64,000 nucleotides of DNA from Acheta domesticus. Taxonomy: Eukaryota > Arthropoda > Insecta > Orthoptera > Gryllidae. The stretch spans positions 164,288,006 to 164,352,005 of the forward strand of contig JAHLJT010008446.1 in assembly GCA_031308135.1 (NCBI GenBank), written 5' to 3'. The notes beneath the pieces are model-generated. The model did not search any database. It saw only the letters and a program-made list of their open reading frames with translations, and had not been told where the DNA came from. Positions within the stretch are counted from its first letter, which is position 1; each line of letters opens with the position of its first letter. This document shows, piece by piece, positions 1,323-58,057 of this stretch. The translations under genes and the position numbers were made by a program.

Positions 1323-2668
1323 CACTCATCGTCACAAAAAAGTTGCACCCCGAAGGACCCAACTGATCCGCTGCAAACTTGGTGGGTATTTTGCACACCA
1401 TTCACTAAGCCAATGATTTCGTTTTCACGGACGGCCGCGCACTGGGGGATCGGGGGTAAGGGAGTGACCTCGTGCCCACCATCCGAGAAACGAGGGTCTC
1501 AAACGCACGCGCCGGCCATTGCGATCAGGTATCGTTGCCAGAGTGGCACCTGCACGTACACTACGTCTAGGCGACGTGTTCGACAGCCGGTTGTCTTGAT
1601 AGAAGCTTTCGAGAGGGGCCGCACCATGGGTGTGCGGGAAGCTGGTTGGTCCTGTCGACATATTGCGCGCCACAGCGGTCGTACGGACACCACCATCGCC
1701 CGCTGTTGGCGGCAATAGATTGAGGAAGGCACGCACACACGAAATGCAAAATCTGGACGTCCGCCACGCACCACGGGGAGGGAGGACCGACGGATGGTCC
1801 GCAACGGGCGACCAGATCCAACGGCAACTATAGGTGCTTCAGCGGTGATTCAGCGGGCTGTGCAGCCTGACCGTTATGACGCCTGCCCCTCATACCCCAG
1901 CAACGTTGCTACAGACTCGCCTGGTGTCGGGAACGACCGACCTGGGGCAATGCAGACTTGCAGTGGGTTTTCATCAGCGAGTCCCGGTTCTGCCTTGATG
2001 GCGACGACCACCGGGTCCGTGTCTGGAGGCGCACTGGGGAGCGCCACGACGAGCGATTTGTGGAATCCCATCACACGTCCCTCCAGCCTGGTGTGATGGT
2101 GTGGGGCGATATCCTATGGTGCCCGTTCACCGTTAGTGTTCCTCGGAGGCAACGTGACAGTCGCACGGTACGTTCAGGAAATCCTTTAACCGGTGGCCCT
2201 GCCGGTCGTGAACGCCCACGCCCATGTCCTGTTTCAACAGGAAAACGCAGGTCCGCATACCGCAGCCACCTCTCGAGCATGCCTTGCAGCCGTAGATACT
2301 CTGCCATGGCCATCCGCATTGCCAGGCCTTTCCCCGATCGAGAATGTTGGGGGTGCTCCGGAGCGTGCGAACAGGACCTCACCCCTACCCACCAATCTGC
2401 AAAAATCGCGCGCTCAGGTGCAGGCTGCATGGCATGGACTAGCACTGGACTCCATTAGAGACCTATACAACTCCATGCCGCGACGTCTGGACGCGTGTGT
2501 TTTCCAACATGGCAACCTAACATCAAACTAACATGTACAGTCTGTGGGCGTGTAGCGCAGTAAATATTGGTCCTACAAACGTGAAAATGTAATCATTTCG
2601 TATGCGTGGTACCCTCTACCTGCCTGCCAACAATGACCGCAATCCGCCTCGTCCTTCTGGGTGCAGCT
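1323..2668 (+). mobile_element. Tc1-like DNA transposon, decayed
   Basis: Degenerate Tc1/mariner-superfamily element, Tc1-like branch. The left terminal repeat begins CACTCATCGTCAC with GTTGCACCCCGAAGG downstream; the matching right inner end (CTTCTGGGTGCAGC, inverted) is near 2648-2665, where the outer tip is lost at a junction with another Tc1 fragment. Between them lies a broken transposase on the + strand. A helix-turn-helix part (about 1624-1780) reads GWSCRHIARHSGRTDTTIAR; a DDE part (about 1955-2445) includes VMVWGDI, QQENA and LSPIEN. The residue expected to be the first catalytic Asp reads Ser (FISESRF) and the second reads Glu (QQENA); the third Glu is kept. Several frame changes break the reading frame, so it should be inactive. 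The (CA)n abutting the left tip hides the TA target site. Confidence 0.85.
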
Positions 2669-2990
2669 TGCCATGCAGCTTGCATCTGAGCGCGCAGTTC
2701 TTGCAGATTGATGGCTAGTTCTTGCAGATTGATCGGGGTCCTGATCGCACGCTCCATAGCACCCCCAACATTCTCTATCGAGGAGAGGTCTGGCGATGCG
2801 GCTGGCCATAGAAGATTATCCACGGCTGCAAGGCATGCTCGAGAGATGGCTGGGGTATGCGGACGCGCGTGTGTCCTGTTGAAATAGGTGGTACACGCCA
2901 TAGTAACATGTACCATCTGTGGCCGTGTAGCGCAATAAGTATTGGTCCTACAAGTGTGAAAATGTAATCATTTTGTATGCATGGTACGTT
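2669..2990 (-). mobile_element. Tc1-like transposon fragment (transposase C-terminus)
   Basis: Second Tc1-like fragment, opposite in direction to its neighbour. The minus strand encodes the transposase C-terminus, with ISRACLAAVDNLLWPAASPD and SSIENVGGAMERAI recognisable at about 2916-2700, followed by a Gln/Ala-rich tail. The 3' non-coding end at 2900-2990 resembles that at 2530-2620 of the adjoining element, so the two meet tail to tail. A short internal duplication repeats TTCTTGCAGATTGAT near 2697-2732. It is truncated at both ends and then runs into R4/Dong-like fragment A. Confidence 0.75.
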
Positions 2991-3000
2991 TTTTCGGCCT

Positions 3001-4060
3001 GGCAAAGATGTATGTAGTCAGCCATGAAGATGACCCTCTCCTGGGACAGGTCATGAAATCTGACCGAAGAATGGGAAACAGAGGCATTGTTAGTGTATCA
3101 AGCAGCATTGAAAAAAAACTATGCAAGTCACGCAGAATGACAGAGACACTGAACTTCTGATGCTTCTTAACATGAAACGTGAAACACAAAAAGTTTTAAA
3201 GAAATCGTGGAGAGACAAACTCTCCACGGACAATATTGGAAATGAATGGACAGAGCACAGATCAATAATGATCAATCTTTTATGTGGCTTAAAGGGGGAA
3301 GAATGAAGCCAGAATCGGAAGCACTTGTAATAGCTGCTCAAGATCAGGTCTTGACAACACGACGTTATGATAAAGCGGTTTTCAAAATTTCCCAAGATTA
3401 TAAATGCCGCATTTGGCAGGAACACGTAGAAACCATTGATCATATTGTCTCAGCTTGTCCAATCCTAGCAAAGACCGATTACTTAAAAAGACACGACAGG
3501 GTATGTAGCTACCTCCACTGGCAGATCTGTACCTCCCTCCAAGTTCCAAAAACATGCCCCAGGTGGTACGAACACTCACCAAAACCGGTGACGTCTGTTG
3601 GATTGTGTACGTTATTGTACGACCAACAAATTCAAACTGATCGCGCGATAGCGGCAAACAAACCGAATATTGTTATTCGCGATTTGGAGAAAAATCGTGT
3701 TTACTTGTCGATGTTGCTGTACCTTGCGATCAAAACGTCGTTACCAAGGAGGCAGAGAAACGTCTTAAATACAAGAGTTTGTAAATCGAGATCAGACGAA
3801 TATGCGGCGTAAAATCACAGGTCGTACCGGTTGTTATCGGAGCCCTGGAATTTGGTCCGCAAAATTTGAGTAAGAACTTGTCTAATCTTCTAGGTAATTC
3901 AAAAGACTGGGAAGTGCAAGAAATCACTTTATTTGGAAGAGCCCACATTTTGCGCAAAGTATTGTAGAGGTACCGACAGTCTCTAGATCTGCTCCTTAAG
4001 TAGGTTGCAACCTGGAGTAGATTTTATATTCATAACATCTTTAGTCGTGATATGGAGGAA
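3001..4060 (+). mobile_element. R4/Dong-like LINE fragment A (C-terminal part and 3' end)
   Basis: 5'-truncated copy of the dominant non-LTR retrotransposon family of the window. It holds the region after the RT, the zinc knuckle and the restriction-like endonuclease (RLE). Near 3405-3480 it reads as the knuckle with ETIDHIVSACPILAKTDYLK; the second Cys is Trp (TGCCGCATTTGG at 3405-3416). The RLE is recognisable from KPNIVIRDLEK (about 3659-3690) and, after a frame change, VDVAVP (3707-3724). The family motif is PD...D, so the first Asp has become Asn. The tail reads VIGALEFGPQNL and LFGRAHIL in another frame. The 3' UTR ends CGTGATATGGAGG and passes into (AAT)n. The RLE places it among early-branching LINEs (R2, R4/Dong, NeSL); the TAA flank favours R4/Dong. 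Inactive. Confidence 0.85.
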
Positions 4061-4112
4061 TAATAATTATAATAATATTAATAATAATAATATTAATAAT
4101 AATAAATATAAT
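4061..4112. repeat. (AAT)n microsatellite at the 3' end of element A
   Basis: Imperfect TAA/AAT repeat that begins where the 3' UTR of element A stops. Other members of the family in this window also abut TAA/TTA repeats. It may be target sequence, a 3' tail, or both. Confidence 0.9.
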
Positions 4113-4265
4113 ATAAGCTTTATTTTTATTATTTCGTTTATTTATTTCGAACTTACATTTTTGTCTGCTACAAAAAAATTACTTTTGATATGACTACCAA
4201 AAAATAATATAATTGTTTTCATTGAATGGATTTCCTTATATTAAGTATTGATTTTTATTTTGTAG

Positions 4266-4482
4266 GACATATCAGTTACGAAATTCTCTCCAAATGCAAT
4301 GCATGCTATTCATTTCCATGTGCCAATAGTGGCACTTGTGAAGCACTACCGCAAAGAAAGTACGTTTGTCGATGTGCACCTGGCTTCCACGGGCAGAGTT
4401 GTCAACATATGATTGATGCGTGCTTCGGTAACCCGTGTCGAAATGGAGGAACATGTAAAGTCATGGAAGAAGGTCGCTTTAG
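4266..4482 (+). CDS. slit: slit exon: EGF-like repeat 1 and start of EGF 2
   Basis: Coding exon of slit, the secreted ligand of Robo receptors that repels axons at the midline. It begins after a pyrimidine-rich TTTTATTTTGTAG acceptor, adds two bases to a split codon, reads open throughout and ends with AG before a GTGAGT donor at 4483. It encodes about 72 residues: the linker after the last LRR capping region ([12 protein letters not shown]), EGF 1 with six Cys ([18 protein letters not shown]), then the first half of EGF 2 ([22 protein letters not shown]). The order matches Drosophila slit closely. The split Ser codon (AG|T) is completed by the exon at 40855, confirming phase. An open frame extends upstream into the intron and should not be annotated. 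A false copy lies at 18625-18847. Confidence 0.95.
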
Positions 4483-4970
4483 GTGAGTATTACATCTTTT
4501 CAGTTTAATTATAGACATAATTTAATTAGGATCATTACTTAAAGAACTAAAAATATACAATTTTATTTAATGCACTGAGATCCATTTTATGATGTGATTG
4601 GAACAAGTTTTCTCGAACAAGTGGTTTTGCCCAGATGTCTTGTAACTAGTTTTTCCCCTCGATGTGCTCCACAGAAATCCGCCCATCCAGATAGCAATCC
4701 CTCACGAAGTAATCACACCCCTTTGTGCTTTGATCGCTTATGAAACAGGATATCTTTTTAGAGTTTCACAGTGCTCGCATTGTCATTTCATGGGATTGGT
4801 TTATTCTTGCATTGAATACCGTTCTCTACGAAGACGGTTCAACAACACTAACTCCTTGGCTCCTTCACTCGCTGCAACAAACTCTGCCTCGGTTGTTGAC
4901 AAGGATTCTGATTTATGTGTTTGGCTAGTCCAGGGTAGGCCCTGCTGGCATAAGTAGCTACAATTCCAGT
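4483..4970. other. slit intron, unassigned
   Basis: Starts with the GTGAGT donor. Positions 4570-4960 contain open stretches on the + strand without recognised motifs. No repeat family was recognised before the T-rich arm that follows. Confidence 0.5.
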
Positions 4971-5960
4971 TCGAAAACTATAGAGTTTTCGAGAAAGTAT
5001 TTTTGACCTTATTTAAAGCACATGTACTCATAAATATAAGAATGTGAACAAATCGCCGCTAATGTAAATATTAACGACGTGAGAAACAAGTCAAAAAATT
5101 AAATTTTTGTAATTTGTACAAAAACAAGAGAATAGAGCACTAGGGCGTTAATGTCATCTCATATAGTACTATTAGTACTATACCTACCAAAAGTTATAAA
5201 GAAAAAATTTGAAGGCGATTTTGAGAAAATTTTGTTTTTGTTCTTTTTTAAAAATTGTGTACATTGCACGCAATATTGCGTGCAAACTCCTAAAATTAAA
5301 AGAAAATGATGACTAAGAACAAATTGTATTTGAAGGGAAAGTCTCAATTTTCAATTTTGTATTTGAAGGAAGACGCCGAAAAAATTCGAACTTTTGCAAT
5401 TTTCAAAAATCAGAGTTGTTAGCACATTTTCCCGGCGCTGCCTATAAACATAGAACTTTTCGCCCAGCTGGGCGCTCTTTGAGCAAGCTTGCCGCCTGTT
5501 TTGGGAGTTCCATGATGATGCAGTGAATTATGCGGCGCAAATATGAATTTCGCGCGTGCTAACAAGAGTTAACCGTGAAATTCGGACCTATACCACGTTT
5601 ATAAGTGTATTCTGCTCAATTTTTAGAAGAAATGTAAAGAAAAAATTTGGAGCCGTTTTTGAGAAAATTTTGAAAATGTTTAGGGGACTTCATGTAATGT
5701 ACCCCCAAAAATTGATGAATGCTTTCAAAATCGCAGAGGCTAGACTTAGGCCAGATGGACAGGAGTTTATTCAATTTAGAAAAAATCCTACGCATGATTT
5801 AGGCGCAAGTGTTGTTCACATACACCGGGCAGACAGAAGGACCGACGGACGTTTTGCTGTCTATTGGTTTTTCGGTATCAAGGACCCACAATTCAGGGAT
5901 TCTGCCTACACCACGTGTTAGGGGATTTTTTTTGTTAATTTAGGAACTGGATTGATCCAC
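4971..5960 (-). repeat. T/A-rich foldback-arm repeat, single arm
   Basis: Copy of the repeat forming the arms of the foldback element at 45981-51994, in the same orientation as its right arm. Shared landmarks in order: a segment with AAAGCACATGTA, GCCGCTAATGTAAATATTAA with GACGTGAGA, a block with GAAAAAATTTGGAGCCGTTT, the run GACTTCATGTAATGTACCCC, an ACAGAAGGACCGACGGACG block, TTTTTCGGTATCAAGGACCC and ACACCACGTGTTAGG. The outer tip of about 120 bp is absent. An open frame at 5556-5921 is a chance property of the repeat and has no host-gene features. Confidence 0.75.
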
Positions 5961-6646
5961 TCTTAGTATTTTAAACAATATTTATTTTGATTACAATAAT
6001 TGTAAGCGCCTAAAGTGTTTTGACTCCCAAGGTGGTCCAAGATCAGCTGCACTGGGTCCTGGACAGTTTGTTAAGTAAGGCTTTTAAAGTGTTTGAGCCA
6101 ATCCATGAATTCTTCATCCGTCCACTCATGCATTCTCCATCGGTAAATAGCACCAAGGGCCATTTAAACTCATTCATTTCAATAAATTATGTTGTTTGGG
6201 GCTGTGATAGTCACGTTGCGATAAATTGAACCACTGATCCCCATTACCCCAAAAGCACATTTTTATCATACCAACTCCTAAAATTGTATAGATTGTTTAA
6301 AATTATTCGCAATTGGTATCAAATGTTCTGCTGAAGGACTTCCCTTCCAAAAAATTTTAATTCTTCCAGAAATCTCCATGTTCACGTATGACCTTAGCGC
6401 TTGAGAGCACTTTATAATATCAATCCCTCACTTTCCTGGTACGAATGCGATAACAATCGTCGAAGTATGCTTTCTTTGACTGCAGAGACCAAGTTATATA
6501 CATGAATAATGTATATAACTTGGTTATCATGATGTATATAACTTTAGTTATCATGAAAAATGGTAGATTGAAGCATATATTGCTGCCTGTCAAAATGGTT
6601 TGTTTACAATATTTTTCAATAAATTACTGCTAACTCCCATTACCCT
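5961..6646. other. slit intron, unassigned, with a perfect hairpin
   Basis: No coding motif was recognised on either strand. A perfect inverted repeat with 15-bp arms (CCAAGTTATATACAT, 5-base spacer, then its complement) occupies 6489-6523, and a partial third copy of the arm follows at 6532-6556. The stretch leads into the LINE RT C-terminus. Confidence 0.5.
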
Positions 6647-7118
6647 ATGAACCGCATTACCATTGCTATTTTAGGATACGCAGCGGCATGCTGGGACCTG
6701 TACAGAAAAGTGAAAATGGAGGCGTTAGATAACATTCAAAAACCGACCAGAAAGTTTGTAATCATGAGCGCACTGTTAATGGACGAGAAGAAGGGGTCCT
6801 TACTTAAGAGAAAAGAATGGGCAAATTTATATCATATACAAGGCAAGGAAGGAGCACAGAATGGGCAGATGTCGGTAGAAGATTACAGAAACCATATTAT
6901 AAAAGCTGAGGGGACCATCCTTGCAAAGTACAATGTAGAAAGCAAAAAAACTGATGTTGACAAGTTTTACTTTTTGAATCACACTATAGTGGATTCGAAC
7001 AAACAACCTGCAAACGCACTAGAGGCTCTTCATTCTAATGTAATCTGATTTAAAATATGCTTAATTCCATTTAAATCACCTCTATTAATAAAGAGACATT
7101 TATTATTATTATTATTAT
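6647..7118 (+). mobile_element. LINE fragment: RT C-terminal tail and 3' end
   Basis: The open frame at 6647-7048 (133 codons) reads ILGYAAACWDLYRKVKMEAL near its start and KKTDVDKFYFLNHTIVDSN near its end. These are the conserved C-terminal blocks after the RT of CR1/Jockey-type LINEs in many animals, usually of the form YAAACWDPY...ALD..Q and KTD.GK.SF.NRTI..WN.LP. The middle is shifted relative to the family: the frame used in the second copy (21180-21270) reads EWADVGRRLQKPYY, as expected, so the sequence carries compensating indels. The 3' side has an AATAAA-like signal (7088) and an (ATT)n tail at 7100-7118. Not a host gene. Confidence 0.75.
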
Positions 7119-7424
7119 TTTGTTTTTTTTCCCGAATCGGCCATCTTGGGGCCATGCGATATGTGCATCCCACCGGGGCTCAGACTTAATTATCGGTGTA
7201 GGTGCACGTTCTTTTTTTTTATACAGGGAATCATCATTTTAATGTTGATTCAATTTTTATACCCCAGGGTTGTTAGTCCTGTGGGATGGGATATAAGTAT
7301 GATGATGAATGGTGAATGAGACACACAACACAACCCTGCCCAAAGCGGGACTCGAACCCGTAATCCTTTTGCCCGAGACCGCTACTCCACTGCTGCCTTA
7401 TCGATTTCGGCTATCGGATCGGCC
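7119..7424 (-). mobile_element. tRNA-derived SINE (family 1)
   Basis: On the minus strand there is an RNA polymerase III type 2 promoter: an A-box-like TGGAGTAGCGG (7378-7388 region) followed about 35 bases later by the B box GGGTTCGAGTCCCGC (7344-7358). Downstream is a tRNA-unrelated body ending in an A-rich tail (AAAAAAAACAAAA, about 7119-7132). The tRNA arms do not fold into a complete cloverleaf, so it is a SINE head, not a tRNA gene. It sits directly after the (ATT)n tail of the preceding LINE. The second assembly copy is at about 21472-21788. Confidence 0.7.
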
Positions 7425-7442
7425 AGTATTACTATTATTTCT

Positions 7443-9082
7443 CCTCTATATCACGACTAAAGATGTTATGTGTCGGCGTATTATAAAGTCTACTGCAGGT
7501 TGCAACCAGCTACCTAAGGAGCAGATCTAAGGACTGTCGGTGCTTCTACAATATTTTGCGCCAAATGTGGCCTGTTCCAAATAAAGCAATTTCTTACACT
7601 TCCCAGTCTTTTGACTTACCAGGGAGTTTAGACAAGGTCTGACACAGATTTTGCGGAACAAATCCCAGAGCTCCGATAACTATCGGGACGACCTGTGATT
7701 TCCTGTGTCCAACCGATGTCATTGGTTTTGGTGAGTGTTCGTACCACATGGGGCATGTGTTTGGAACTTCGAGGGCGGTACAGATCTGCCAGTGAAGGTA
7801 GCTACACACCCTGTCGTGTCTTTTCAAGTATTCGGTCATTGCCAGAATTGGACAAGCTGAGACAATATGATCAATGGTTTTTCGTGTTCCTGACAAATAC
7901 GGCATTTATAATCTGGGGAAATTCTGAGAACCGCTTTATCAGAATGTCGGGTTGTCAAGGCCTGATCTTGGGCAGCCGGGGCCTGATCTTCCGATTCTGG
8001 CTTCATTCTTCCCCTTTTAAGCCACATAAATGATTGATCTTTATTGATCTGTGCTCTGTCCATTCGTTTCAATTTTCTCCGTGAAGCGGTTTGTCTCTAA
8101 ACACTTTTTGCGTCTCACATTTCATGTTAAGTAGCATCAGAAGTTCAATATTTGTCATTCTGCGTGTCTTGCATAGTTTTCTTTGCAATGCTTCTTGATA
8201 CACTAACACTACCTCTGTTTCCCATTCGGTCAGATTTCATGACCTGCCTCATTAGAGGGTCATCTTCATCGCTCACCACATACTTTCCCATTCCGAATAT
8301 TGCGTTGTGCCACGAGGCCTCTTCCTCCTCCCTTACGTGACACATAAAGTCAATGTACATCAGCTCGAGGGTGGGAAACATGATGCATTGTTAGCAGCTT
8401 TCTGGTTTTTCGATTCATGATGCGAATTTCTCGCTCAGTCCAGTCTACTAGTCCGAAACTGTATTCTACCGGCACCGCCAATTGCTATTGCCAATTGCCA
8501 TACCTATTGCTGATTTTTTTTATTCCTAGTATTCAGGGAGGACTACAGGACCAATCTCATTAATCTGTAATAATCCCTGCGAATTCTCTCTTTCATTGTG
8601 TCGTTCGAGATGGTCTAACATTCTTCAATGCCCAGTTATTTGTACGTTTTACCCGACTCAAGATATTGAATTAGTGTGCGTATCAATTTCAGTTCTCTGT
8701 GAAGTTATCATTTTGCCTCTTTTTAAATTGATTTTTACACACTTGTCAAGACCAAACTTCATGCAGTTGTCATTGCAAAAATCATTGATGACAGACAGCA
8801 TTTGGGAGAGAATCGCTTCATTCTTAGCAAACACTTTCAGATCATTCATGTAAAACAAATGTGATGCTGGCCTTTCATCACCATGGAGCTTGTAACGAAA
8901 GTCAGCTTGCGACAACTGTCTAGATAGTGGGATCAAACTAATGCAAAACAGCAGAGGGGATAGTGAATCTCCTTGAAAAATACCCCTGTTGATTTTAATA
9001 CTTCTGGTTTCTACTGCTTCCTTTCTGCTGTGTATTAGTAACCGGGTACTCCACGACTTCATACTAGCCTTACAAAATTCAA
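7443..9082 (-). mobile_element. R4/Dong-like LINE fragment B (RT to 3' end)
   Basis: Minus-strand, 5'-truncated copy. From 9062 downward the RT reads MKSWSTRLLIHSRKEAVE, then NRGIFQGDSLSPLLFCISLI, then the catalytic box as YMNDLKV, where family members have YMDDLKV, then FGLDKC. The box is thus mutated from Asp to Asn. Next come the linker (8381-8145, HVREEEEASWHN), the knuckle region (8072-7836), YLKRHDRVCSYLHWQI, and after a deletion of the RLE core, VVPIVIGALGF and SKDWEV. Its 3' UTR (7443-7590) matches element A in reverse complement. The break at 9082 lies in the RT, followed by AT-rich sequence. Confidence 0.85.
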
Positions 9083-9203
9083 TAAGGTTATTATTTATTT
9101 AACTTATTAAGTTAATTTATTTACCTAGTTTATTTAAGTATATTTATTTAAGTTATTCAGTAAATTTTATTAACTAAATAAGTTAATTGTTATTATTATT
9201 ATT
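9083..9203. repeat. AT-rich spacer between elements B and C
   Basis: Low-complexity TTTATTTAAG/TTAAC-type sequence ending in (TTA)n at 9190-9203. It lies between the truncated 5' side of B and the 3' end of C. No gene. Confidence 0.8.
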
Positions 9204-11668
9204 CCACTAGATCACGACTAAAGATGTTCTGTGTCGGCTGAATATAAAATCAACTCCAGGTTGCAACCAGCTACCTAAGGACCAGATCTAGGGACTCTCG
9301 GTGCCTCTACAATACTTTGCGCAAAATGTAGGCTGTTCCAAATAACGCTTTTCTGTTGTGTATTAGTAACCTTGTACTCCACAATTTCATACTAGCCTTG
9401 CAAAACTCAGAAGTCTAGGATGAAATCGATAGATCTCCAGTGTCTTCAAAATCCAATCGTGTGATATACTGTCAAAGGCCTTCTGGTAGTCAATCTAAGC
9501 CATGCTTAAATTACGTTTTCGTTTCTTTACATCATTCAAAATTATTTTTATTCAGTAGCAAGATTTCCTTACAGCCATAGGAACCTTAACGACATCCTTT
9601 CTGTTCAACTGGCAACAGATGGTTCTTCTGTAGGTGTCTTTACATTTTGTCAGCTATGGCTGCAGTTATAACTTTGCACATTACTCACAGGCAATGGCCT
9701 GTAGTTCTTTGCCAAAGAGCTGTCTCCCGCTTTGGGTTGCAAATACTTGGTGCCGCGAGTGAGCCATTCTGGGTGTTCCGTAGGGTTTTCTAAATATTTA
9801 ATTAACAGCCTTTGCTAAATGTGAATGTAATGCCGTTAATTTCTTAATGCAATAAATCAGGATTTTATTAATCTCGGGGGTTTTCCCGTATTCTTAATTG
9901 CTTGGCAGATGTCGTCTTCTGATAATTCGTGAACATGTTCCATGGTTTCCACGAGTCCATCAACTTCGGATTGAACTTCAGATTGGAGACAAGATGCGTG
10001 TTTGCTGTATGATCTGGTTCCCTCCCAGATTCCTGCCCAAACTGTTTCGACGTCATCTTTTGAAGACGGGCCAGCATTGCCATTCGGTTTTGGAGTCAGA
10101 CTGTGATAGAATCTCTTCGCGGCTGTTTCAATCAACTGGTACACGGAAATCTTATCTACGTTTGTAACGTTTAATTCGTTGAGCCCATGCTTGAATTTTT
10201 TTCTTTTAGCTTCTTAGCTATCATAAACCTTGATGTGTCATTTCGGTATTTTTGTTCAACGTGGAGTATTATTTTGAACTTTGGAAGTTGATTGTATTTA
10301 GAAGATGCCTTGGCCAGGAGTAATATTTCATACCGTGTGTCGACTATACGTTTCATCATTCTTTTCACCCTGGGGGTACGGAGCTGTTTTCTCTGGCGTC
10401 CGGCCGTCGATATTCTTGGCTGGCCCCAAAATTATCTGAAATACCAGATATTCATTTGCATATACGATGTCATTGATTTCAGTAATATCTTGATGTCTAC
10501 ATGGGGTCTGTACAACCTCAGTCAAGACAAAATTCGTTGTTTCTATCACTCTCTTAGTTTTAGCATTTTCGTAAATTCTTCTCAACACTGCACGAGATTC
10601 GAATAAAAGTAGACTATTCCGCATCATGTCCTTATCGTGTGACTCATAGCCAGATGAATTTTCACCAATGACGGATGTTTCATTTGGAAGAGATAAACCT
10701 TCAATCGGACCACCGTTTTCAGGTATATTAGATGGTTCTCAATTTTCTTCATGTGGATAGTTCGATCGAAGAATATAATCCACTTTTCTCAGGATACCAG
10801 CAAGTTGTCCTGCTTTGAATTTTCTACTGCTGAGCATGTATCGTTTTTGACCCGGAAGCTTCTTTGAGTCTAGGGTAGGTCTCAGCTGGGTTCCCCTCTC
10901 TCCATACCTTAAAAAGTTCTATTTCCAAGTCCCGATTTCCCGCTTTTGCATAGTAAAAGCACCACATCACCTCTTTCAGTTCATCCCGGGTCCATCTCTG
11001 ACGTGGTTTCGAGCTGCTGACGGCCCTGGGTCCCTGGAACTAACATCCCTGGGAAGGCCAGATGTTGACAAGGTGACATTAGCTCGGTTTCTGTGCTGGT
11101 ATGGAACGTTGGTAGATCAAGCTACGTTAAGATTCATTACATTTTTTGTTCTATCCATATTGCTCATTGGTTTTGAGTGAAGATTCGCCGGTAGCAAGTT
11201 CAAGTTTACAGATCACACTTAACCCATGGGTTATTTATCGTCATCCGTTACTGCGAGCAGCAGTGGCCTCGGGACATCCCCCGCATTGCCCAGCAAGGGG
11301 TCCCTCCGATCGACAGTTGGCATTTCTAGACCCGACGGGATTTTCACTGACTGCTGAAGGCAGCCTACTTCACGGTCTAATGCAAGGTTCGGGCGTCCAC
11401 TCTAATCAGTGGCCTGGCGTGCCAACCCAGTTTCTCTCTTGTACCCTCCAAAGGCCGATAACATGAAGTGTAAAGGTACATCACATTTCCCTCTCTACAT
11501 ACTTCCCATTCTCCTCAAAATGAAGTATTTGTTCGCCTGACCCCTCTCCTTCATCCTATTCAGCAAGGGAGGCCCTACTAGTAGCTAGGCTACCACTGAC
11601 CTAGCTCTCAGTCTCAAGGGGTTCTCAACCTCCTCCAACTACAAGGTCGTGTACTCCGTAGGTGAGAG
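9204..11668 (-). mobile_element. R4/Dong-like LINE C (5' end present, internally deleted)
   Basis: Minus-strand element with both outer ends. The 5' UTR lies at 11030-11668. The N-terminus near 11020-10960 reads RQRWTRDELKEVMWCFYYAK, a Trp-containing Myb-like start (inferred) shared with F. Next come ENAKTKRVIETTNFVLTEVV (10580-10510), ILGPAKN, a basic segment, KRFYHSLTPKPNGNA, and EDDICQAIKNT leading into the RT. RT blocks are weak and frame-broken between 9860 and 9360. At about 9343 the RT joins directly to the extreme 3' end, so the YMDD box, zinc knuckle and nearly all of the RLE are deleted. Premature stops occur throughout. The 5' end abuts (TTA)n, then the 3' end of D. Confidence 0.8.
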
Positions 11669-11708
11669 TAATTATTATTATTATTATATTTATTATTATT
11701 ATTATATT
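11669..11708. repeat. (TTA)n between elements C and D
   Basis: TTA microsatellite of about 40 bp separating the 5' end of C from the 3' end of D; the second assembly copy (26034-26073) has the same arrangement. Confidence 0.9.
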
Positions 11709-14700: not shown

Positions 14701-14810
14701 TCTCTTGGCTTTGGCATTTTCGTATATTCTCCTCAAACAGTGTGCGAGTTTCAAACGGAAGTTGATTAACTGTTCGATCGCGCGCGAAGATGATTTCGAA
14801 TCATGTCCTT
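11709..14810 (-). mobile_element. R4/Dong-like LINE D (most complete C-terminal half)
   Basis: Minus-strand element lacking only the N-terminus and 5' UTR. From the 5' side: the basic region (about 14340-14280), KDDVEACWAAMCGESRS, RT blocks from about 14050 down, NRGIFQGDSLSPLLFCISLI (near 13500), the box YMDDLKV (intact in the second copy at 27740), the block VDWTEQEIRIMDRKSRKLLT (about 12985-12930), the zinc knuckle CRICHEKVETLDHIVSACP (about 12400-12340), and the RLE with IPDIVIRDFEKK followed 14 residues after PD by VDIAVPCDLLV (about 12140-12060). The PD...D motif is therefore kept. The 3' UTR ends at 11709. Frame is broken in several places; some breaks are absent from the second copy, so part of the damage is assembly error. 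Confidence 0.85.
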
Positions 14811-14866
14811 TATTAATATTATTATTTATATTATTATATTATTATTATTTTTATTATTCTGTATCA
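14811..14866. repeat. (TTA)n between elements D and E
   Basis: Imperfect TTA/ATT repeat at the truncated 5' side of D. E begins directly after it. Confidence 0.85.
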
Positions 14867-18420: not shown

Positions 18421-18624
18421 TAATAATTATAATAATATTAATAATAATAATATTAATAATAATAAAATAATATAAGCTTTATTTTTATTATTTCGTTTAT
18501 TTATTTCGAACTTACATTTTTGTCTGCTACAAAAAAATTACTTTTGATATGAATACCAAAAAATAATATAATTGTTTTCATTGAATGGATTTCCTTATAT
18601 TAAGTATTGATTTTTATTTTGTAG

Positions 18625-18847
18625 GACATATCAGTTACGAAATTCTCTCCAAATGCAATGCATGCTATTCATTTCCATGTGCCAATAGTGGCACTTGTGT
18701 GAAGCACTACCGCAAAGAAAGTACGTTTGTCGATGTGCACCGGGCTTTCCACGGGCAGAGTTGTCAACATATGATTGATGCGTGCTTCGGTAACCCGTGT
18801 CGAAATGGAGGAGGAACATGTAAAGTCATGGAAGAAGGTCGCTTTAG
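18625..18847 (+). other. False second copy of the slit EGF1-2 exon
   Basis: Corresponds to 4266-4482 with the same acceptor and the same GTGAGT donor, but is 223 bp instead of 217. Three insertions occur: +2 in the EGF 1 Cys region (GCACTTGTGTGAAG), +1 before CCACGGGCAGAG and +3 in the GGAGGAGGA run. Between the first two the frame is shifted, replacing the conserved EGF 1 segment and removing two of its Cys. Both versions have length 1 modulo 3 with the same phases, so splicing both into one mRNA would break the frame. It should not be annotated as an additional exon. Confidence 0.9.
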
Positions 18848-21804
18848 GTGAGTATTACATCTTTTCAGTTTAATTATAGACATAATTTAATTAGGATCAT
18901 TACTTAAAGAACTAAAAATATAACAATTTTATTTAATGCACTGAGATCCATTTTATGATGTGATTGGAACAAGTTTTCTCGAACAAGTGGTTTTGCCCAG
19001 ATGTCTTGTAACTAGTTTTTCCCCTCGATGTGCTCCACAGAAATCCGCCCATCCAGATAGCAATCCCTCACGAAGTAATCACACCCCTTTGTGCTTGATC
19101 GCTTATGAAAAGGATATCTTTTTAGAGTTTCACAGTGCTCGCATTGTCATTTCATGGATTGGTTTATTCTTGCATTGAATACCGTTCTCTACGAAGACGG
19201 TTCAACAACACTAACTCCTTGGCTCCTTCACTCGCTGCAAACAAACTCTGCCTCGGTTGTTGACAAGGATTCTGATTTATGTGTTTGGCTAGTCCAGGGT
19301 AGGCCCTGCTGGCATAAGTAGCTACAATTCCAGTTCGAAAACTATAGAGTTTTCGAGAAAGTATTTTTGACCTTATTTAAAGCACATGTACTCATAAATA
19401 TAAGAATGTGAACAAATCGCCCGCTAATGTAAATATTAACGACGTGAGAAACAAGTCAAAAAATTAAATTTTGTAATTTGTACAAAAACAAGAGAATAGA
19501 GCACTAGGGCGTTAATGTCATCTCATATAGTACTATTAGTACTATACCTACCAAAAGTTATAAAGAAAAAAATTTGAAGGCGATTTTGAGAAAATTTTGT
19601 TTTGTTCTTTTTAAAAAATTGTGTACATTGCACGCAATATTGCGTGCAAACTCCTAAAATTAAAAGAAAATGATGACTAAGAACAAATTGTATTTGAAGG
19701 GAAAGTCTCAATTTTCAATTTTGTATTTGAAGGAAGACGCCGAAAAAATTCGAACTTTTGCAATTTTCAAAAATCAGAGTTGTTAGCACATTTTCCGGCG
19801 CTGCCTATAAAACATAGAACTTTTCGCCCAGCTGGGCGCTCTTTGAGCAAGCTTGCCGCCTGTTTTGGGAGTTCCATGATGATGCAGTGAATTATGCGGC
19901 GCAAATATGAATTTCGCGCGTGCTAACAAGAGTTAACCGTGAAATTCGGACCTATACCACGTTTATAAGTGTATTCGCTCAATTTTTAGAAGAAATGTAA
20001 AGAAAAAATTTGGAGCCGTTTTTGAGAAAATTTTGAAAATGTTTAGGGGACTTCATGTAATGTACCCCCAAAAATTGATGAATGCTTTCAAAATCGCAAG
20101 AGGCTAGACTTAGGCCAGATGGACAGGAGTTTATTCAATTAGAAAAAATCCTACGCATGATTTAGGCGCAAGTGTTGTTCACATACACCGGGCAGACAGA
20201 AGGACCGACGGACGTTTTGCTGTCTATTGGTTTTTTCGGTATCAAGACCCACAATTCAGGGATTCTGCCTACACCACGTGTTAGGGGATTTTTTTTGTTA
20301 ATTTAGGAACTGGATTGATCCACTCTTAGTATTTTAAACAATATTTATTTGATTACAATAATTGTAAGCGCTAAAGTGTTTTGACTCCCAAGGTGGTCCA
20401 AGATCAGCTGCACTGGGTCCTGGGACAGTTTGTTAAGTAAGGCTTTTAAAGTGTTTGAGCCAATCCATGAATTCTTCATCCGTCCACTCATGCATTCTCC
20501 ATCGGTAAATAGCACCAAGGGCCATTTAAACTCATTCATTTCAATAAATTATGTGTTTGGGGCTGTGATAGTCACGTTGCGATAAATTGAACCACTGATC
20601 CCCATTACCCCAAAAGCACATTTTTATCCATACCAACTCCTAAAATTGTAAGATTGTTTAAAATTATTCGCAATGGTATCAAAGTTCTGCTGAAGGACTT
20701 CCCTTCCAAAAAATTTTTAATTCTTCCAGAACTCTCCATGTTCACGTATGACCTTAGCGCTTGAGAGCACTTTATAATATCAATCCCTCACTTCCTGGTA
20801 CGAATGCGATAACAATCGTCGAAGTATGCTTCTTTGACTGCAGAGACCAAGTTATATACATGAATAATGTATATAACTTGGTTATCATGATGTATATAAC
20901 TTTAGTTATCATGAAAAAATGGTAGATTGAAGCATATATTGCTGCCTGTCAAAATGGTTTGTTTACAATATTTTTCAATAAATTACTGCTAACTCCCATT
21001 ACCCTATGAACCGCATTACCATTGCTATTTTAGGATACGCAGCGGCATGCTGGGACCTGTACAGAAAAGTGAAAATGGAGGCGTTAGATAACATTCAAAA
21101 ACCGACCAGAAAGTTTGTAATCATGAGCGCACTGTTAATGGACGAGAAGAAGGGGTCCTTACTTAAGAGAAAAGAATGGGGCAAATTTATATCATATACA
21201 AGGCAGGGAAGGAGCACAGAATGGGCAGATGTCGGTAGAAGATTACAGAAACCATATTATAAAAGCTGAGGGGACCATCCTTGCAAAGTACAATGTAGAA
21301 AGCAAAAAAACTGATGTTGACAAGTTTTACTTTTTGAATCACACTATAGGGGATTCGAACAAACAACCTGCAAACGCACTAGAGGCTCTTCATTCTAATG
21401 TAATCTGATTTAAAATATGCTTAATTCCATTTAAATCACTCTATTAATAAAGAGACATTTATTATTATTATTATATTATTTTGTTTTTTTTCCCGAATCG
21501 GCCATCTTGGGGCCATGCGATATGTGCATCCCACCGGGGCTCAGACTTAATTATCGGTGTGTAGGTGCACGTTCTTTTTTTTTATACAGGGAATCATCAT
21601 TTTAATGTTGATTCAATTTTTATACCCCAGGGTTGTTAGTCCTGTGGGATGGGATATAAGATGATTGATGAATGGTGAATGAGACACACAACACAACCCT
21701 GCCCAAAGCGGGACTCGAACCCGTAATCCTTTTGCCCGAGACGCTACTCCACTGCTGCCTTATCGATTTCGGCTATCGGATCGGCCAGTATTACTATTAT
21801 TTCT

Positions 21805-23448
21805 CCTCTATATCACGACTAAAGATGTTATGTGTCGGCGTATTATAAAGTCTACTGCAGGTTGCAACCAGCTACCTAAGGAGCAGATCTAAGGACTGTC
21901 GGTGCTTTACAATATTTGCGCCAAATGTGGCCTGTTCCAAATAAAGCAATTCTACACTTCCCAGTCTTTTGACTTACCAGGGAGTTTAGACAAGGTCTGA
22001 CACAGATTTTGCGGAACAAATCCCAGAGCTCCGATAACTATCGGGACGACCTGTGATTTCCTGTGTCCAACCGATGTCATTGGTTTTGGTGAGTGTTCGT
22101 ACCACATGGGGCATGTGTGTGGAACTTCGAGGGCGGTACAGATCTGCCAGTGAAGGTAGCTACACACCCTGTCGTGTCTTTTCAAGTATTCGGTCATTGC
22201 CAGAATTGGACAAGCTGAGACAATATGATCAATGGTTTTTCGTGTCCTGACAAATACGGCATTTATAATCTGGGGAAATTCTGAGAACCGCTTTATCAGA
22301 ATGTCGGGTTGTCAAGGCCTGATCTTGGGCAGCCGGGGCCCTGATCTTCCGATTCTGGCTTCATTCTTCCCCTTTTAAGCCACATAAATGATTGATCTTT
22401 ATTGATCTGTGCTCTGTCCATTCGTTTCAATTTTCTCCGTGAAGCGGTTGTCTCTAAACACTTTTTGCGTCTCACATTTCATGTTAAGTAGCATCAGAAG
22501 TTCAATATTTGTCATTCTGCGTGTCTTGCATAGTTTTCTTTGCAATGCTTCTTGATACACTAACACTACCTCTGTTTCCCATTCGGTCAGATTTCAGACC
22601 TGCCTCATTAGAGGGTCATCTTCATCGCTCACCACATACTTTCCCATTCGAATATTGCGTTGTGCCACGAGGCCTATTCCTCCTCCCTTACGTGACACAT
22701 AAAGTCAATGTACATCAGCTCGAGGGTGGGAAACATGATGCATTGTTAGCAGCTTCTGGTTTTCGATTCATGATGCGAATTTCTCGCTCAGTCCAGGTCT
22801 ACTAGTCCGAAACTGTATTCTACCGGCACCGCCAATTGCTATTGCCAATTGCCATACCTATTGCTGATTTTTTTTATTCCTAGTATTCCAGGGAGGACCT
22901 ACAGGACCAATTCTCATTTAATCTGTACTAATCCTGCGAATTCTCTCTTTCATTGTGTCGTTCGAGATGGTCTAACATTCTTCAATGCCCAGTTATTTGT
23001 ACGTTTTTACCCGACTCAAGATATTGAATTAGTGTGGCGTATCAATTTCAGTTCTCTGTGAAGTTATCATTTTGCCTCTTTTTAAATTGATTTTTTACAC
23101 ACTTGTCAAGACCAAACTTCATGCAGTTTGTCATTGCCAAAAATCATTGATGACAGGACAGCATTTCGGGAGAGAATCGCTTCATTCTTAGCAAACACTT
23201 TCAGATCATTCATGTTAAAACAAATGTGATGCTGGCCTTTCATCACCATGGAGCTTGTAACGAAAGTCAGCTTGCGGACAAACTGTCTAGATAGTGGGAT
23301 CAAACTAATGCAAAACAGCAGAGGGGATAGTGAATCTCCTTGAAAAAATACCCTGTTGATTTTAATACTTCTGGTTTCTACTGCTTCCTTTCTGCTGTGT
23401 ATTAGTAACGGGTACTCCACGACTTCATACTAGCCTTACAAAATTCAA
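21805..23448 (-). mobile_element. R4/Dong-like fragment B, second assembly copy
   Basis: Same as 7443-9082 with more indels, including one next to the RT box. The Asp-to-Asn change in the box is shared (MNDLKVF). Confidence 0.85.
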
Positions 23449-23568
23449 TAAGGTTATTATTTATTTAACTTATTAAGTTAATTTATTTACCTAGTTTATT
23501 TAAGTATATTTATTTAAGTTATTCAGTAAATTTTATTAACTAAATAAGTTAATTGTTATTATATTATT

Positions 23569-26033
23569 CCACTAGATCACGACTAAAGATGTTCTGTGTC
23601 GGCTGAATATAAAATCAACTCCAGGTTGCAACCAGCTACCTAAGGACCAGATCTAGGGACTCTCGGTGCCTCTACAATACTTTGCGCAAAATGTAGGCTG
23701 TTCCAAATAACGCTTTTCTGTTGTGTATTAGTAACCTTGTACTCCACAATTTCATACTAGCCTTGCAAAACTCAGAAGTCTAGGATGAAATCGATAGATC
23801 TCCAGTGTCTTCAAAATCCAATCGTGTGATATACTGTCAAAGGCCTTCTGGTAGTCAATCTAAGCCATGCTTAAATACGTTTTCGTTTCTTTACATCATT
23901 CAAAATTATTTTATTCAGTAGCAAGATTTCCTTACAGCCATAGGAACCTTAACGACATCCTTTCTGTTCAACTGGCAACAGATGGTTCTTCTGTAGGTGT
24001 TCTTTACATTTTGTCAGCTATGGCTGCAGTTATAACTTTGCCACATACTCACAGCAATGGCCTGTAGTTCTTTGCCAAAGAGCTGTCTCCCGCTTTGGGT
24101 TGCAAATACTTGGTGCCGCGAGTGAGCCATTCTGGGTGTTCCGTAGGGTTTTCTAAATATTTAATTAACAGCCTTGCTAAATGTGAATGTAATGCCGTTA
24201 ATTTCTTAATGCAATAAATCAGGATTTTATTAATCTCGGGGGTTTTCCCGTATTCTTAATTGCTTGGCAGATGTCGTCCTCTTCTGATAATTCGTGAACA
24301 TGTTCCATGGTTTCCACGAGTCCATCAACTTCGGACTTGAACTTCAGATTGGAGACAAGATGCGTGTTTGCTGTATGATCTGGTTCCCTCCCAGATTCCT
24401 GCCCAAACTGTTTCGACGTCATCTTTTGAAGACGGGCCAGCATTGCCATTCGGTTTTGGAGTCAGACTGTGATAGAATCTCTTCGCGGCTGTTTCAATCA
24501 ACTGGTACACGGAAATCTTATCTACGTTTGTAACGTTTAATTCGTTGAGCCCATGCTTGAATTTTTTTCTTTTAGCTTCTTAAGCTATCATAAACCTTGA
24601 TGTGTCATTTCGGTATTTTTGTTCAACGTGGAGTATTATTTTGAACTTTGGAAGTTGATTGTATTTAGAAGATGCCTTGGCCAGGAGTAATATTTCATAC
24701 CGTGTGTCGACTATACGTTTCATCATTCTTTTTCACCCTGGGGGTACGGAGCTGTTTTCTCTGGCGTCCGGCCGTCGATATTCTTGGCTGGCCCCAAAAT
24801 TATCTGAAATACCAGATATTCATTTGCATATACGATGTCATTGATTTCAGTAATATCTTGATGTCTACATGGGGTCTGTACAACCTCAGTCAAGACAAAA
24901 TTCGTTGTTTCTATCACTCTCTTAGTTTAGCATTTTCGTAAATTCTTCTCAACACTGCACGAGATTCGAATAAAAGTAGACTATTCCGCATCATGTCCCT
25001 TATCGTGTGACTCATAGCCAGATGAATTTTCACCAATGACGGATGTTTCATTGGAAGAGATAAACCTTCAATCGGACCACCGTTTTCAGGTATATTAGAT
25101 GGTTCTCAATTTTCTTCATGTGGATAGTTCGATCGAAGAATATAATCCACTTTTCTCAGGATACCAGCAAGTTGTCCTGCTTTGAATTTTCTACTGCTGA
25201 GCATGTATCGTTTTTGACCCGGAAGCTTCTTTGAGTCTAGGTAGGTCTCAGCTGGGTTCCCCTCTCTCCATACCTTAAAAAGTTCTATTTCCAAGTCCGA
25301 TTTCCCGCTTTTGCATAGTAAAAGCACCACATCACCTCTTTCAGTTCATCCCGGGTCCATCTCTGACGTGGTTTCGAGCTGCTGACGGCCCTGGGTCCCT
25401 GGAACTAACATCCCTGGGAAGGCCAGATGTTGACAAGGTGACATTAGCTCGGTTTCTGTGCTGGTATGGAACGTTGGTAGATCAAGCTACGTTAAGATTC
25501 ATTACATTTTTTGTTCTATCCATATTGCTCATTGGTTTTGAGTGAAGATTCGCCGGTAGCAAGTTCAAGTTTACAGATCACACTTAACCCATGGGTTATT
25601 TATCGTCATCCGTTACTGCGAGCAGCAGTGGCCTCGGGACATCCCCCGCATTGCCCAGCAAGGGGTCCCTCCGATCGACAGGTTGGCATTTCTAGACCCG
25701 ACGGGATTTTCACTGACTGCTGAAGGCAGCCTACTTCACGGTCTAATGCAAGGTTCGGGCGTCCACTCTAATCAGTGGCCTGGCGTGCCAACCCAGTTTC
25801 TCTCTTGTACCCTCCAAAGGCCGATAACATGAAGTGTAAAGGTACATCACATTTTCCCTCTCTACATACTTCCCATTCTCCTCAAATGAAGTATTTGTTC
25901 GCCTGACCCCTCTCCTTCATCCTATTCAGCAAGGGAGGCCCTACTAGTAGCTAGGCTACCACTGACCTAGCTCTCAGTCTCAAGGGGTTCTCAACCTCCT
26001 CCAACTACAAGGTCGTGTACTCCGTAGGTGGAG
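23569..26033 (-). mobile_element. R4/Dong-like LINE C, second assembly copy
   Basis: Same as 9204-11668, including the internal deletion that joins the 3' end to the RT region. The 5' tip reads CCGTAGGTGGAG, agreeing with F (58030 region) better than the first copy does. Confidence 0.85.
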
Positions 26034-26035
26034 TA

Positions 26036-26066
<31 letters not shown>

Positions 26067-26073
26067 TATTATT

Positions 26074-29000
26074 CCTCCATATCTCGACTAAAGATGTTAT
26101 GAGTCGGCTGAATATAAAGTCTACTGCAGGTTGCCACCAGCTACCTAAGGAGCAGATCTAGGGACTGCCGGTGCTTCTACAATATTTTGCGCCACATGTG
26201 AGCTGTGCCAATTTCTTGCACTTCCAGTCCTCTGAATGACCTGGAAGTTTAGCCAAGTTCTTCAACAAATTTGCTGAACAGATACCAGAGCTCCGATAAC
26301 TATCGGGACGACCTGTGCTTTCCTGTGTCCACGTGACGACGTGTGCTTTTACCCACCACATTCGGCTGATCTCAATTTCCAAACTCTTGTATTTTTAGAC
26401 GTTTCTCTGCCTCCTCGGTTACGAGAAGATCGCAAGGCACAGCAATATCTACAAGTAGACACAATTTTTTTCTCAAAATCCCGGATAACAATATCCGGTA
26501 TGTTTGGTGCTATCGTGCGATCCGTTTGAATTTGTTGGTCGTACAATATTGTACAGAGTACAACCGATGTCACCGGTTTTGGTGAGTTTTTCGTACCGCA
26601 TGAGGCATGTGTTTGGAACTTTGAGGGCGGTGAAAATCTGCCAGTGGAGGTAACAGCAGACCCTGTCGTATCTTCGTGAGTATTCGGTATTTGCTGGAAT
26701 TGGACAAGCTGAGACAATATGATCAAGGGTTTCTACTTTCTCCTGGCAAATGCGGCATTTGTCATCTTGGGAAATTTTGAGAACCGCTTTATCATAATGT
26801 CCGTGTTCTCAACGCCTGATCTTGAAGCTACTAGAAACTGTTTTGCGGTTCTGGCTTCATTCTTCCCCTTTTAAGCCACATAAATTATTGATCTTTTATT
26901 GATCTGCACCTTGTCTATTCTTTTTAGATATTGTCCATGGAGTGGTTTGTCCCTCCAGAGTTCTTTAACATTTTTATGTAAAATGTCTTTAACAGTTTTA
27001 AGTGTCCCAAATTTCATTTTGGTAGTACCAGAAGTTCAGTGTCTGTGTTATTCGACATGTCTTGAATAGTTTTCTTTGCAATGATTTTTTGCTACACTAA
27101 CAATGCCTCTGTTTCCCATTCTTCGGTCAGATTTCATGACCTGCCTTATTAGAGGGTCATCTTTGATGACTGACTACATACTTTCCCATTCCAACTATTG
27201 TATTGTACGAAGAGGTCTCAATTGTCTGAGGCCTCTTCCTTCTTCCTTACGTGACACATAAAGTCTATGTACATCAGATCGAGGGTGGGTGTTATGATGC
27301 ATTGTTAGCAGTTTTCTGCTTTTTCGATCCATGATGCGAATTTCTTGCTCAGTCCAGTCCACTAGTCCGGAACTTTACTAAAATACAGCCACCGCCAGAC
27401 TACCAATTGCATATATTTTATTCCTGGTGTTCAGAACAGACTACAGGACCAGTCTCACCGTTTTGTAATACTCCTTGCGAATTCTTTCTTTTTATTGTGT
27501 CGTTCTAGATGGTCTCACAATCTTCAGTGCCCAGATATTTGTACTTTTTCCTGGCTCAAAGTCTTGAATCAGTGTGCATATCAACTTCAATGCTCTCTGA
27601 CGTTGTCAGTTTGCGTTTTTCGAAATTGATTTTTGCTTCATTGTCAAGACCAAACTTCATGCAGATGTCATTGCTAAATACATTCACGACAGACAGCATT
27701 GGGAGAAAATCTCTTCATTCTTAGCAAAACACTTTCAAATCATCCATGTAAAACAAATGTGATAGTGGCCTTTCATCACCATGGAGCTTAAAACCAAAGT
27801 CACCTTGCGACATCTGTCTCGATAGTGGGATCAAACTAATGCAAAACAGCAGAGGGGATAGTGAATCTCCTTGAAAAATACCCCTGTTGATCTGAATACT
27901 TGTGGTTTCTACTGTTTCCTTTCTGCTCTGTATTAGTAACCTGGTACTCCACGACTTCATACTAGCCTTGCAAAATTCAAGAAGTCTAGGATGAAATCGA
28001 TAGATCTTTAGGGTCTACAAAATCCAATAGTATGGTACACTATTAAAGGATTTTTGGTAGTCAATCCAAGCAATGCTCAAATTGCGTTTTCGTGTACATC
28101 ATTCAAGATGACGTTATTTAGTATCAAGATTTACTTGCAGCCATAAGAATCTTTACATCCTTTTCGTTCAAACGGGCATTAGATGATTCTTCTCTAGATG
28201 TCTGTACATTTTGTCAGCTATGGCTGATGTTATAACTTTGTACGGAACTAGCAGACAAGCTGGCCTGTAGTTCTTCGCCAAAGAGCTTTATCCCGCTTTG
28301 GGTAGCAGATACGTGATGCCATGTGTGAGCAATTCCGGTAGTTCCTTTGGATTTTCTAAAATTTTATTAATAGCCTTGGCTAGATGCGGATGTGATGCTT
28401 TTAATTTCTTAATTCAATAAATTTGGATCATATCCATCCCGGAGGATTTCTAGTTCCCCATGTTCTTAATTGCTGGGAAGAGGTCTTCTTGGAGAATTCG
28501 TGAACATCAACTTCAGATTGAAGCTAAGATGCGTCCTTGTAGGATCTGCTCTCTCCACACATTGCTGCCCAACATGCCTCGACATCATCTTTTGAAGGAG
28601 TGACAGCATTGCTATTCGGTTTCTGAGTCAGATTGCGATAGAATCTCTTCGCGTATGTTTCAAACAATCGGTTCTGCACACGGAAATCTATTCTACGTTT
28701 GTAACGTCTAAATCTTTGAGCCCATGCTTGAATTTTCTCCTTTAGCTTCTCAACTACAATTAGCCTGCTGGTGTTATTTTCAATTTGGTATTCTTGTTCA
28801 ATATTGAATATCTTTCGTTGAACTTTAGTGGTGTGCGTTGATTTAGAAGATGCCTCTGCTAAGAGTGATATTTCCCGGCGGGTGCCGGCTATCCGATTCA
28901 TAATTTTCTTTGTCCATGAGGGTACAGAGCTGTTTACTCTGTTTTGCTGTCGGCCGTCGGTGTTCTTTGCTGGCCCCAAAATTAACTGAGATGCTGGATA

Positions 29001-29208
29001 TCCTGTTGCATATATGATGTCATTGATTTCAGTAATATCTAGATCTCTACCCGGGGTCTACCACCTCATTTAAGACTGAATTTCCCGTCTCTATAACTCT
29101 CTTGGCTTTGGCATTTTCGTATATTCTCCTCAACAGTGTGCGAGTTTCAAACGGAAGTTGATTAACTGTTTCGATCTCGCGCCGAAGATGATTTCGAATC
29201 ATGTCCTT
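26074..29208 (-). mobile_element. R4/Dong-like LINE D, second assembly copy (cleaner)
   Basis: Counterpart of 11709-14810 but with fewer frame breaks. Open frames at 28524-28979 (basic region: RYKRRIDFRVQNRLFET, KRFYRNLTQKPNSNA) and 27721-27960 (RT: NRGIFQGDSLSPLLFC, SHLFYMDDLKVF) are longer here than in the first copy. It is the better version for reconstructing family features. Confidence 0.85.
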
Positions 29209-29265
29209 TATTAATATTATTATTTATATTATTATTATTATTATTATTTTTATTATTCTGTATCA

Positions 29266-29800
29266 TCCCAGAGCTTCGATAACTATCGGGATGACCTGTG
29301 CTTTTATATTCGACTGATTTCGATTTCTATACTCTTGATGTGTTTCTTTGCCTCCTTGGTTACGACGTTTTGCCACAAGGCACAGCAACATCTACAAATA
29401 ATCACGATTTTTTCTCCAAATTCTGGATAACTATATCCGTTTTTGCCGCTATCATGCGATCAGTTTAGATTTGTTTATCATTCAATATATATATATATAT
29501 ATGTTTATCATACATAATCCAACAGATGTCACCGGTTTTGGTGAGTGTTCGTACCACTCGTGTTTGGAACTTCGAGGGCGGAATATATCTGCCAATGGAG
29601 GTAACTACACACCCTGTCGTCTCCTCTCAAATATTCGATCTTAGCTAGAATTGGACAAGCTGAGACGATATGATCAATGGTTTCTTCTCTTTCTTGGCAT
29701 ATGCAGCAGTTATCATCTTGGAAAATATTGATAACCACTTTATCTAAATGTCGTTTTCTCATCGCGTGATCGTGACTGGTTTGGGGACGCGGTTGGTGTG
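29266..29800 (-). mobile_element. R4/Dong-like LINE fragment E (fuller copy)
   Basis: Minus-strand fragment. The frame at 29843-29529 includes RKRHLDKVVINIFQDDNC, CICQEREETIDHIVSACP (zinc knuckle), RVCSYLHWQI and ALEVPNT. Downstream on the minus strand is a decayed RLE region containing a (TA)n at about 29485-29503. The 3' end and 3' UTR are missing, and the 5' side stops near 29800. The part after 29740 has no counterpart in the first copy because the gap cuts it. Confidence 0.8.
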
Positions 29801-29874
29801 TTTTTGTGATTATCACCAAGAACAGCGTATAATAAACTGCCAATACTGCTTAGATATGATTTTGTATAAATGAA

Positions 29875-30318: not shown

Positions 30319-30419
30319 ATATATTTTACATAATAATTGTTCATTGCAGCCACAGAAGGCAATATGCGAAACGTATCTGGCCTCATCACTGCGACAAAAG
30401 AATGGTGTCATTCTCTTGT

Positions 30420-58036: not shown

Positions 58037-58057
58037 GTGGAGTTGTTGTTGTTATTG

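What the first reader, a model, noticed from the sequence alone, without database searches (positions are those of the whole stretch)
1985..29740. False 13.4 kb duplication around a 1000-N gap
The left contig ends at 15336 in sequence that recurs at 29740, and the right contig begins at 16337 in sequence that recurs at 1985. Order, orientation and TE insertions are identical throughout. Because the repeat unit runs exactly from one gap edge to the other, an unmerged overlap of two contig ends explains it fully; a biological tandem duplication would not be expected to end at the gap. It inflates the slit intron by about 14.35 kb and doubles an exon.
Basis: partly seen in the sequence, partly recalled or inferred. 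Interest (0 to 1): 0.8.

Follow-up and report, generated by a model that had tools for sequence, protein, structure and literature searches.

The report
Assembly error duplicates slit exon
Two neighbouring pieces of a draft arthropod genome overlap by 13.4 kb but were laid end to end with a gap instead of merged, so one stretch of the slit gene, including an exon, appears twice although the animal very probably has it once.

Summary
Window 1985-15336, ending at a 1000-N gap, aligns from end to end with 16337-29740, starting at that gap, at 98.28% identity. The differences do not look evolutionary: 28 mismatches against 190 gap openings, with 162 of 176 indels of one base, whereas transposon copies in this genome differ mainly by substitutions. 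Outside transposon copies used as referees put most errors in the right copy near the right contig's start and in the left copy near the left contig's end. The duplicated exon is a slit EGF exon, intact at 4266-4482 and garbled at 18625-18847. Used once it gives an open reading frame that matches Slit relatives without a break; used twice it runs into stops. This is an unmerged overlap of contig ends, the VGP's 'homotype false duplication' or Kelley and Salzberg's 'duplicated overlapping contigs'. Only reads or another assembly can exclude that; I give it about 4%. Ordinary artefact, low interest.

The parts
1985..15336 (+). left copy of the overlap: last 13,352 bp of the left contig
   Evidence: self-megablast; edge bases
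15337..16336 (.). scaffold gap of exactly 1000 N, probably a placeholder (inferred; no second gap was available for comparison)
16337..29740 (+). right copy of the overlap: first 13,404 bp of the right contig
   Evidence: self-megablast; edge bases
4266..4482 (+). slit exon (EGF1 and first part of EGF2), 217 bp, intact, AG/GT splice sites
   Evidence: Pfam EGF E 4e-10
18625..18847 (+). false second copy of that exon, 223 bp, with 2, 1 and 3 extra bases that garble EGF1
   Evidence: no Pfam match at E 0.05
40855..40994 (+). next slit exon (rest of EGF2, EGF3)
45124..45293 (+). slit exon (EGF4, start of EGF5)
45398..45605 (+). slit exon (rest of EGF5, EGF6)
60364..60598 (+). slit exon (start of laminin-G domain)

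Best explanation
The left contig ends at 15336 and the right contig begins at 16337, and both cover the same 13.4 kb of one locus. The assembler did not merge them, probably because noisy long-read consensus at the contig ends lowered the overlap identity. The scaffolder then placed them side by side with a 1000-N spacer. The result is a false tandem duplication of the homotype kind (same locus, same haplotype, differing by sequencing errors), with a false extra slit exon. Shown here: dovetail geometry, error spectrum, error gradient, effect on the slit frame. Inferred: the steps taken by the assembler and scaffolder, and that the data were noisy long reads.
For: (a) A collinear match from gap edge to gap edge. 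(b) 28 mismatches to 190 gap openings; by MAFFT 55 substitutions and 176 indels, 162 of them 1 bp, 140 of 176 a copy of the adjacent unit. 13 of the 55 substitutions stand 10 bp or more from any other event, and 2 of these 13 are transitions. Controls: the window's transposon pair 23715-26073/55676-58083 has 306 mismatches to 57 gap openings; 28 family copies of the element at 13495-14119 (best-scoring copies, so not a random sample) add up to 254 substitutions and 13 indels from the family (my sums from the table). (c) At that element left and right each carry 46 substitutions from the family, and differ from each other by one substitution and six gap runs. (d) Of 170 difference clusters 129 had two or more outside votes and 124 were decided: left correct 34 to 2 in the first third, 28 to 5 in the middle (by subtraction), 19 to 36 in the last third, 7 to 29 in the last 2.7 kb (Fisher p 4e-9 for first against last third). 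(e) The exon used once gives an open frame of 322 codons across five exons; used twice it gives frameshift and stops. (f) The 12 relatives that align at 49-72% identity over nearly the whole peptide have at most one inserted residue at the join. (g) The exon region has two full places among the 40 scored candidates in the assembly; the other listed matches span 198 bases or fewer and lie in the first 186 bases of the query, outside the exon.
Against: No reads or depth were available. Contig ends would carry more errors also if the duplication were real, so (b) and (d) do not by themselves separate the two. An open slit frame from one copy does not exclude a real second copy that is skipped; the right copy alone also leaves the frame open from end to end, with a garbled EGF1. 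In the last third 19 of 55 decided sites still favour the left copy, so the gradient is not a clean switch, and 41 of 170 clusters had too few votes. No other gap of this assembly could be examined, so the rate of such errors in it is unknown.
Confidence: 0.85

Rival explanations
1. Heterotype false duplication: the two contig ends are the two alleles of one diploid locus, each kept and laid in tandem.
For: Same geometry. Kelley and Salzberg (PMC2864568, section 6 read) report a median identity of 98.1% for falsely duplicated contigs, which they ascribe to haplotypes.
Against: 13 isolated substitutions in 13.35 kb, 2 of them transitions, i.e. about 0.1%; the rest is mostly indel noise. Which side is off-family depends on the distance to the contig end, which allelic differences would not do.
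Confidence: 0.1
2. Real, very recent tandem duplication whose unit is larger than 13.4 kb; its inner junction and the remainder of both copies lie in the gap.
For: The match edges are contig ends and so carry no information about breakpoints. Not excluded by any search here.
Against: Needs divergence of about 0.1% or less. The exon is 217 bp, not a multiple of three, so including it twice shifts the frame into stops; it would have to be skipped. In Kelley and Salzberg's four genomes 19,959 of 20,906 duplicated overlapping contigs were judged false (my sum of their Table 1; in dog 8 of 22; most of their mis-assembled contigs are under 2 kb, far shorter than this).
Confidence: 0.04
3. Real tandem duplication with breakpoints exactly at 1985 and 15336/29740.
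For: The repeat unit ends exactly there.
Against: The breakpoints would have to coincide to the base with both gap edges. The edge at 1985 lies inside a transposon copy that runs on unbroken in the left contig (1867-2669 matches 61817-61020). The match 29506-29753 to 55364-55618 also crosses 29740, but by 13 bases only.
Confidence: 0.01

Closest known systems
Homotype false duplication at contig boundaries (Vertebrate Genomes Project, PMC8081667; passages read)
   Same: Overlapping sequence at contig boundaries, dovetailed, laid in tandem with a gap between, copies of unequal quality.
   Different: Read length and k-mer copy number could not be checked; this is an arthropod, not a vertebrate.
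Duplicated overlapping contigs, DOC (Kelley and Salzberg 2010, PMC2864568; passages and section 6 read)
   Different: They ascribe theirs to haplotype difference and most are under 2 kb; here the differences are mostly indel noise over 13.4 kb. Mate pairs not available.
False exon gain (Ko et al. 2022, PMC9516828; passages read)
   Same: An exon within a gene falsely duplicated, with an assembly gap between the copies.
   Different: No annotation of this genome was seen, so whether a gene model carries the extra exon is unknown.

Membership tests
Homotype false duplication (VGP) | duplicate lies at contig boundaries with a gap between | tested here: met
Homotype false duplication (VGP) | differing consensus quality between copies | tested here: met
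   by sequence only (the VGP used read alignments): error gradient; exon garbled in the right copy
Homotype false duplication (VGP) | no haplotype-specific variants | tested here: inconclusive
   13 isolated substitutions; no reads or k-mers
Homotype false duplication (VGP) | length about that of a corrected read | not testable with these tools
   read data unknown; 13.4 kb is in the usual long-read range (recalled)
Homotype false duplication (VGP) | assembly k-mer copy number above that in reads | not testable with these tools
   no reads
Duplicated overlapping contigs (Kelley and Salzberg) | match over 300 bp, over 95% identity, within 300 bp of both contig ends | tested here: met
   13.4 kb, 98.28%, 0 bp from both ends
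Duplicated overlapping contigs (Kelley and Salzberg) | mate pairs fit better when contigs are merged | not testable with these tools
   no reads
Heterotype (allelic) false duplication | copies differ by haplotype-specific variants | tested here: inconclusive
   13 isolated substitutions, 2 transitions, in 13.35 kb speak against it, but a pair of haplotypes that differ by 0.1% or less is not excluded; no reads

The most novel reading that the evidence does not exclude
A real, very young tandem duplication of more than 13.4 kb inside slit, with its inner junction in the gap, adds an EGF1-2 exon that is skipped or used in an alternative transcript.
Probability: 0.04. Interest if true: 0.35.

Novelty: not a real feature. 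Interest (0 to 1): 0.08.

Why it matters
It matters for users of this assembly: a gene model may carry a false extra slit exon or break there, and the intron 4483-40854 (36.4 kb as drawn, exon edges) is about 22.0 kb once one copy and the gap are taken off. As a method point, transposon copies elsewhere in a genome can serve as referees to show, without reads, which copy of a false duplication is wrong where.

Tried and rejected
Real duplication with breakpoints at the gap edges: rejected on geometry. Allelic contigs: made less likely, not excluded, by the scarcity of substitutions. A third copy or alternative contig in the assembly: the exon region 3950-4950 has two full places, and 15000-15336 has two places at 97-100% with the others at 78% or less; 40 candidates were scored in each search, of 2742 and 3247 in the first look. 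An own-genome search with 29500-30500, across the right edge, did not complete, so that question stays open. Base rate of such overlaps at other gaps: 120 kb of neighbouring sequence was fetched; it held no further 1000-N gap, so no rate is given. Species: a first guess of a tick, from genome size and number of large contigs (it led to the paper search), was dropped when the best relatives of the slit peptide turned out to be an unlabelled protein at 72% over the whole peptide and, among named ones, a protein of Callosobruchus maculatus at 77% over 78% of it. I call it an arthropod, probably an insect; that is inference. Searches failed because the frames held stop codons; exon pieces were searched instead.

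Full report
What is there. The window is C5460:164288006-164352005 of an unnamed 2.33-Gb assembly in 6511 contigs. Its only run of N is 1000 long, at 15337-16336. The 13,352 bp before the gap (1985-15336) match the 13,404 bp after it (16337-29740) on the same strand in one unbroken alignment, 98.28% identical, reaching both gap edges. Megablast lists no other self-match over 200 bp at 92% or more in 144 kb around it, N runs included. The geometry is that of a suffix of one contig equal to a prefix of the next.

How the copies differ. Megablast counts 28 mismatches and 190 gap openings. MAFFT counts 231 events: 55 substitutions and 176 indels, 162 of them of one base; 140 of the 176 indels add or drop a unit equal to its neighbour. 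Many substitutions sit beside other events and may be alignment noise: 13 are 10 bp or more from any other event, and 2 of those 13 are transitions. Mutation in this genome looks different. A transposon pair in the window shows 306 mismatches to 57 gap openings, and 28 family copies of the element at 13495-14119 sum to 254 substitutions and 13 indels against the family (my sums from the table; these are the best-scoring copies, not a random sample). At that element the left and right copies count 46 substitutions from the family each, yet differ from each other by one substitution and six gap runs, so they are the same insertion. Against the family the left copy there has 8 deletions and 1 insertion, the right copy 4 and 1.

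Which copy is wrong where. I asked transposon copies outside the overlap which version of each difference they share. The 231 events form 170 clusters; 129 had at least two votes, 124 gave a decision, 5 did not, and 41 had too few votes. The left copy agrees with the families at 34 of 36 sites in the first third (next to the right contig's start), 28 of 33 in the middle (by subtraction) and 19 of 55 in the last third; in the last 2.7 kb the right copy agrees at 29 of 36. With five or more votes the first and last thirds give 13:2 and 17:35 (p 2.7e-4). Among single-event sites the right copy's errors are 35 insertions, 22 deletions and 7 substitutions, the left copy's 12, 19 and 1. Votes come from related copies, so p values are only a guide. 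Each contig is thus worse toward its own end, the right contig over a longer stretch. This fits unpolished contig ends. It would hold for any contig end, so it supports the error nature of the differences rather than the artefact itself.

The exon. The exon at 4266-4482 has AG and GT splice sites and codes for EGF1 and the first part of EGF2 (Pfam EGF E 4e-10). The right copy, 18625-18847, has 2, 1 and 3 extra bases, so EGF1 is misread between the first two, and it has no Pfam match at E 0.05. The following exons are at 40855-40994, 45124-45293, 45398-45605 and 60364-60598, all with AG/GT edges. Joined once, they give an open frame of 322 codons: six EGF domains by my count, then the start of a laminin-G domain. 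With both exon copies included the frame shifts and runs into stops, because the exon length is not a multiple of three (217 and 223 are both 1 mod 3). With the right copy alone the frame stays open, since 2 + 1 + 3 is a multiple of three, but EGF1 is garbled. The peptide's relatives include proteins named slit (P0017, P0025, P0030 and others; 188 at E 1e-40, best 120 listed). Of those 120, 56 have an alignment that spans the join by my filter; the 12 that align at 49-72% identity over nearly the whole peptide (P0001-P0009, P0013, P0017, P0026; only P0017 bears the name slit-like) have at most one inserted residue there, and 53 of the 56 have fewer than 10. The three exceptions (P0116, P0110, P0052) are a fibropellin-like, an unnamed and a Notch protein. 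Slit has this EGF1-6, LamG, EGF7 order (recalled); an LRR N-terminal motif upstream and a further EGF motif downstream in the neighbouring sequence fit.

Interpretation. [quoted passage not shown] Kelley and Salzberg's alignment criteria for duplicated overlapping contigs are met, and in their four genomes 19,959 of 20,906 such pairs were judged false by mate pairs (my sum of their Table 1; in dog only 8 of 22; PMC2864568, passages and section 6). Ko et al. call the effect on genes a false exon gain (PMC9516828, passages).

What remains open. A real duplication larger than 13.4 kb and diverged by about 0.1% or less, with its junction in the gap, cannot be excluded without reads. I give 0.85 to a homotype artefact, 0.1 to an allelic artefact (0.95 for an artefact of either kind) and 0.05 to a real duplication.

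Noticed in passing
1322-2669 and 61020-62406: Two copies, on opposite strands, of one DNA-transposon-like element (mariner-like by eye, not tested); the left one runs unbroken across 1985, where the right contig begins.
   Followed up: partly
55516-58091, with relatives at 9350-11708 and 23715-26073: Retrotransposon-like ORFs (by eye; type not tested) of a family with many copies in the genome: 2901 first-look candidates for the related piece 13495-14119, of which 40 were scored.
   Followed up: partly
31309-34447: A broken run of ORFs that looks by eye like a non-LTR retrotransposon on the + strand; not tested.
   Followed up: no
L045 about 8411 and L051 about 3664: An LRR N-terminal motif and an EGF motif on either side of the window, probably further slit exons; they lie about 119 kb apart as the assembly is drawn.
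   Followed up: partly
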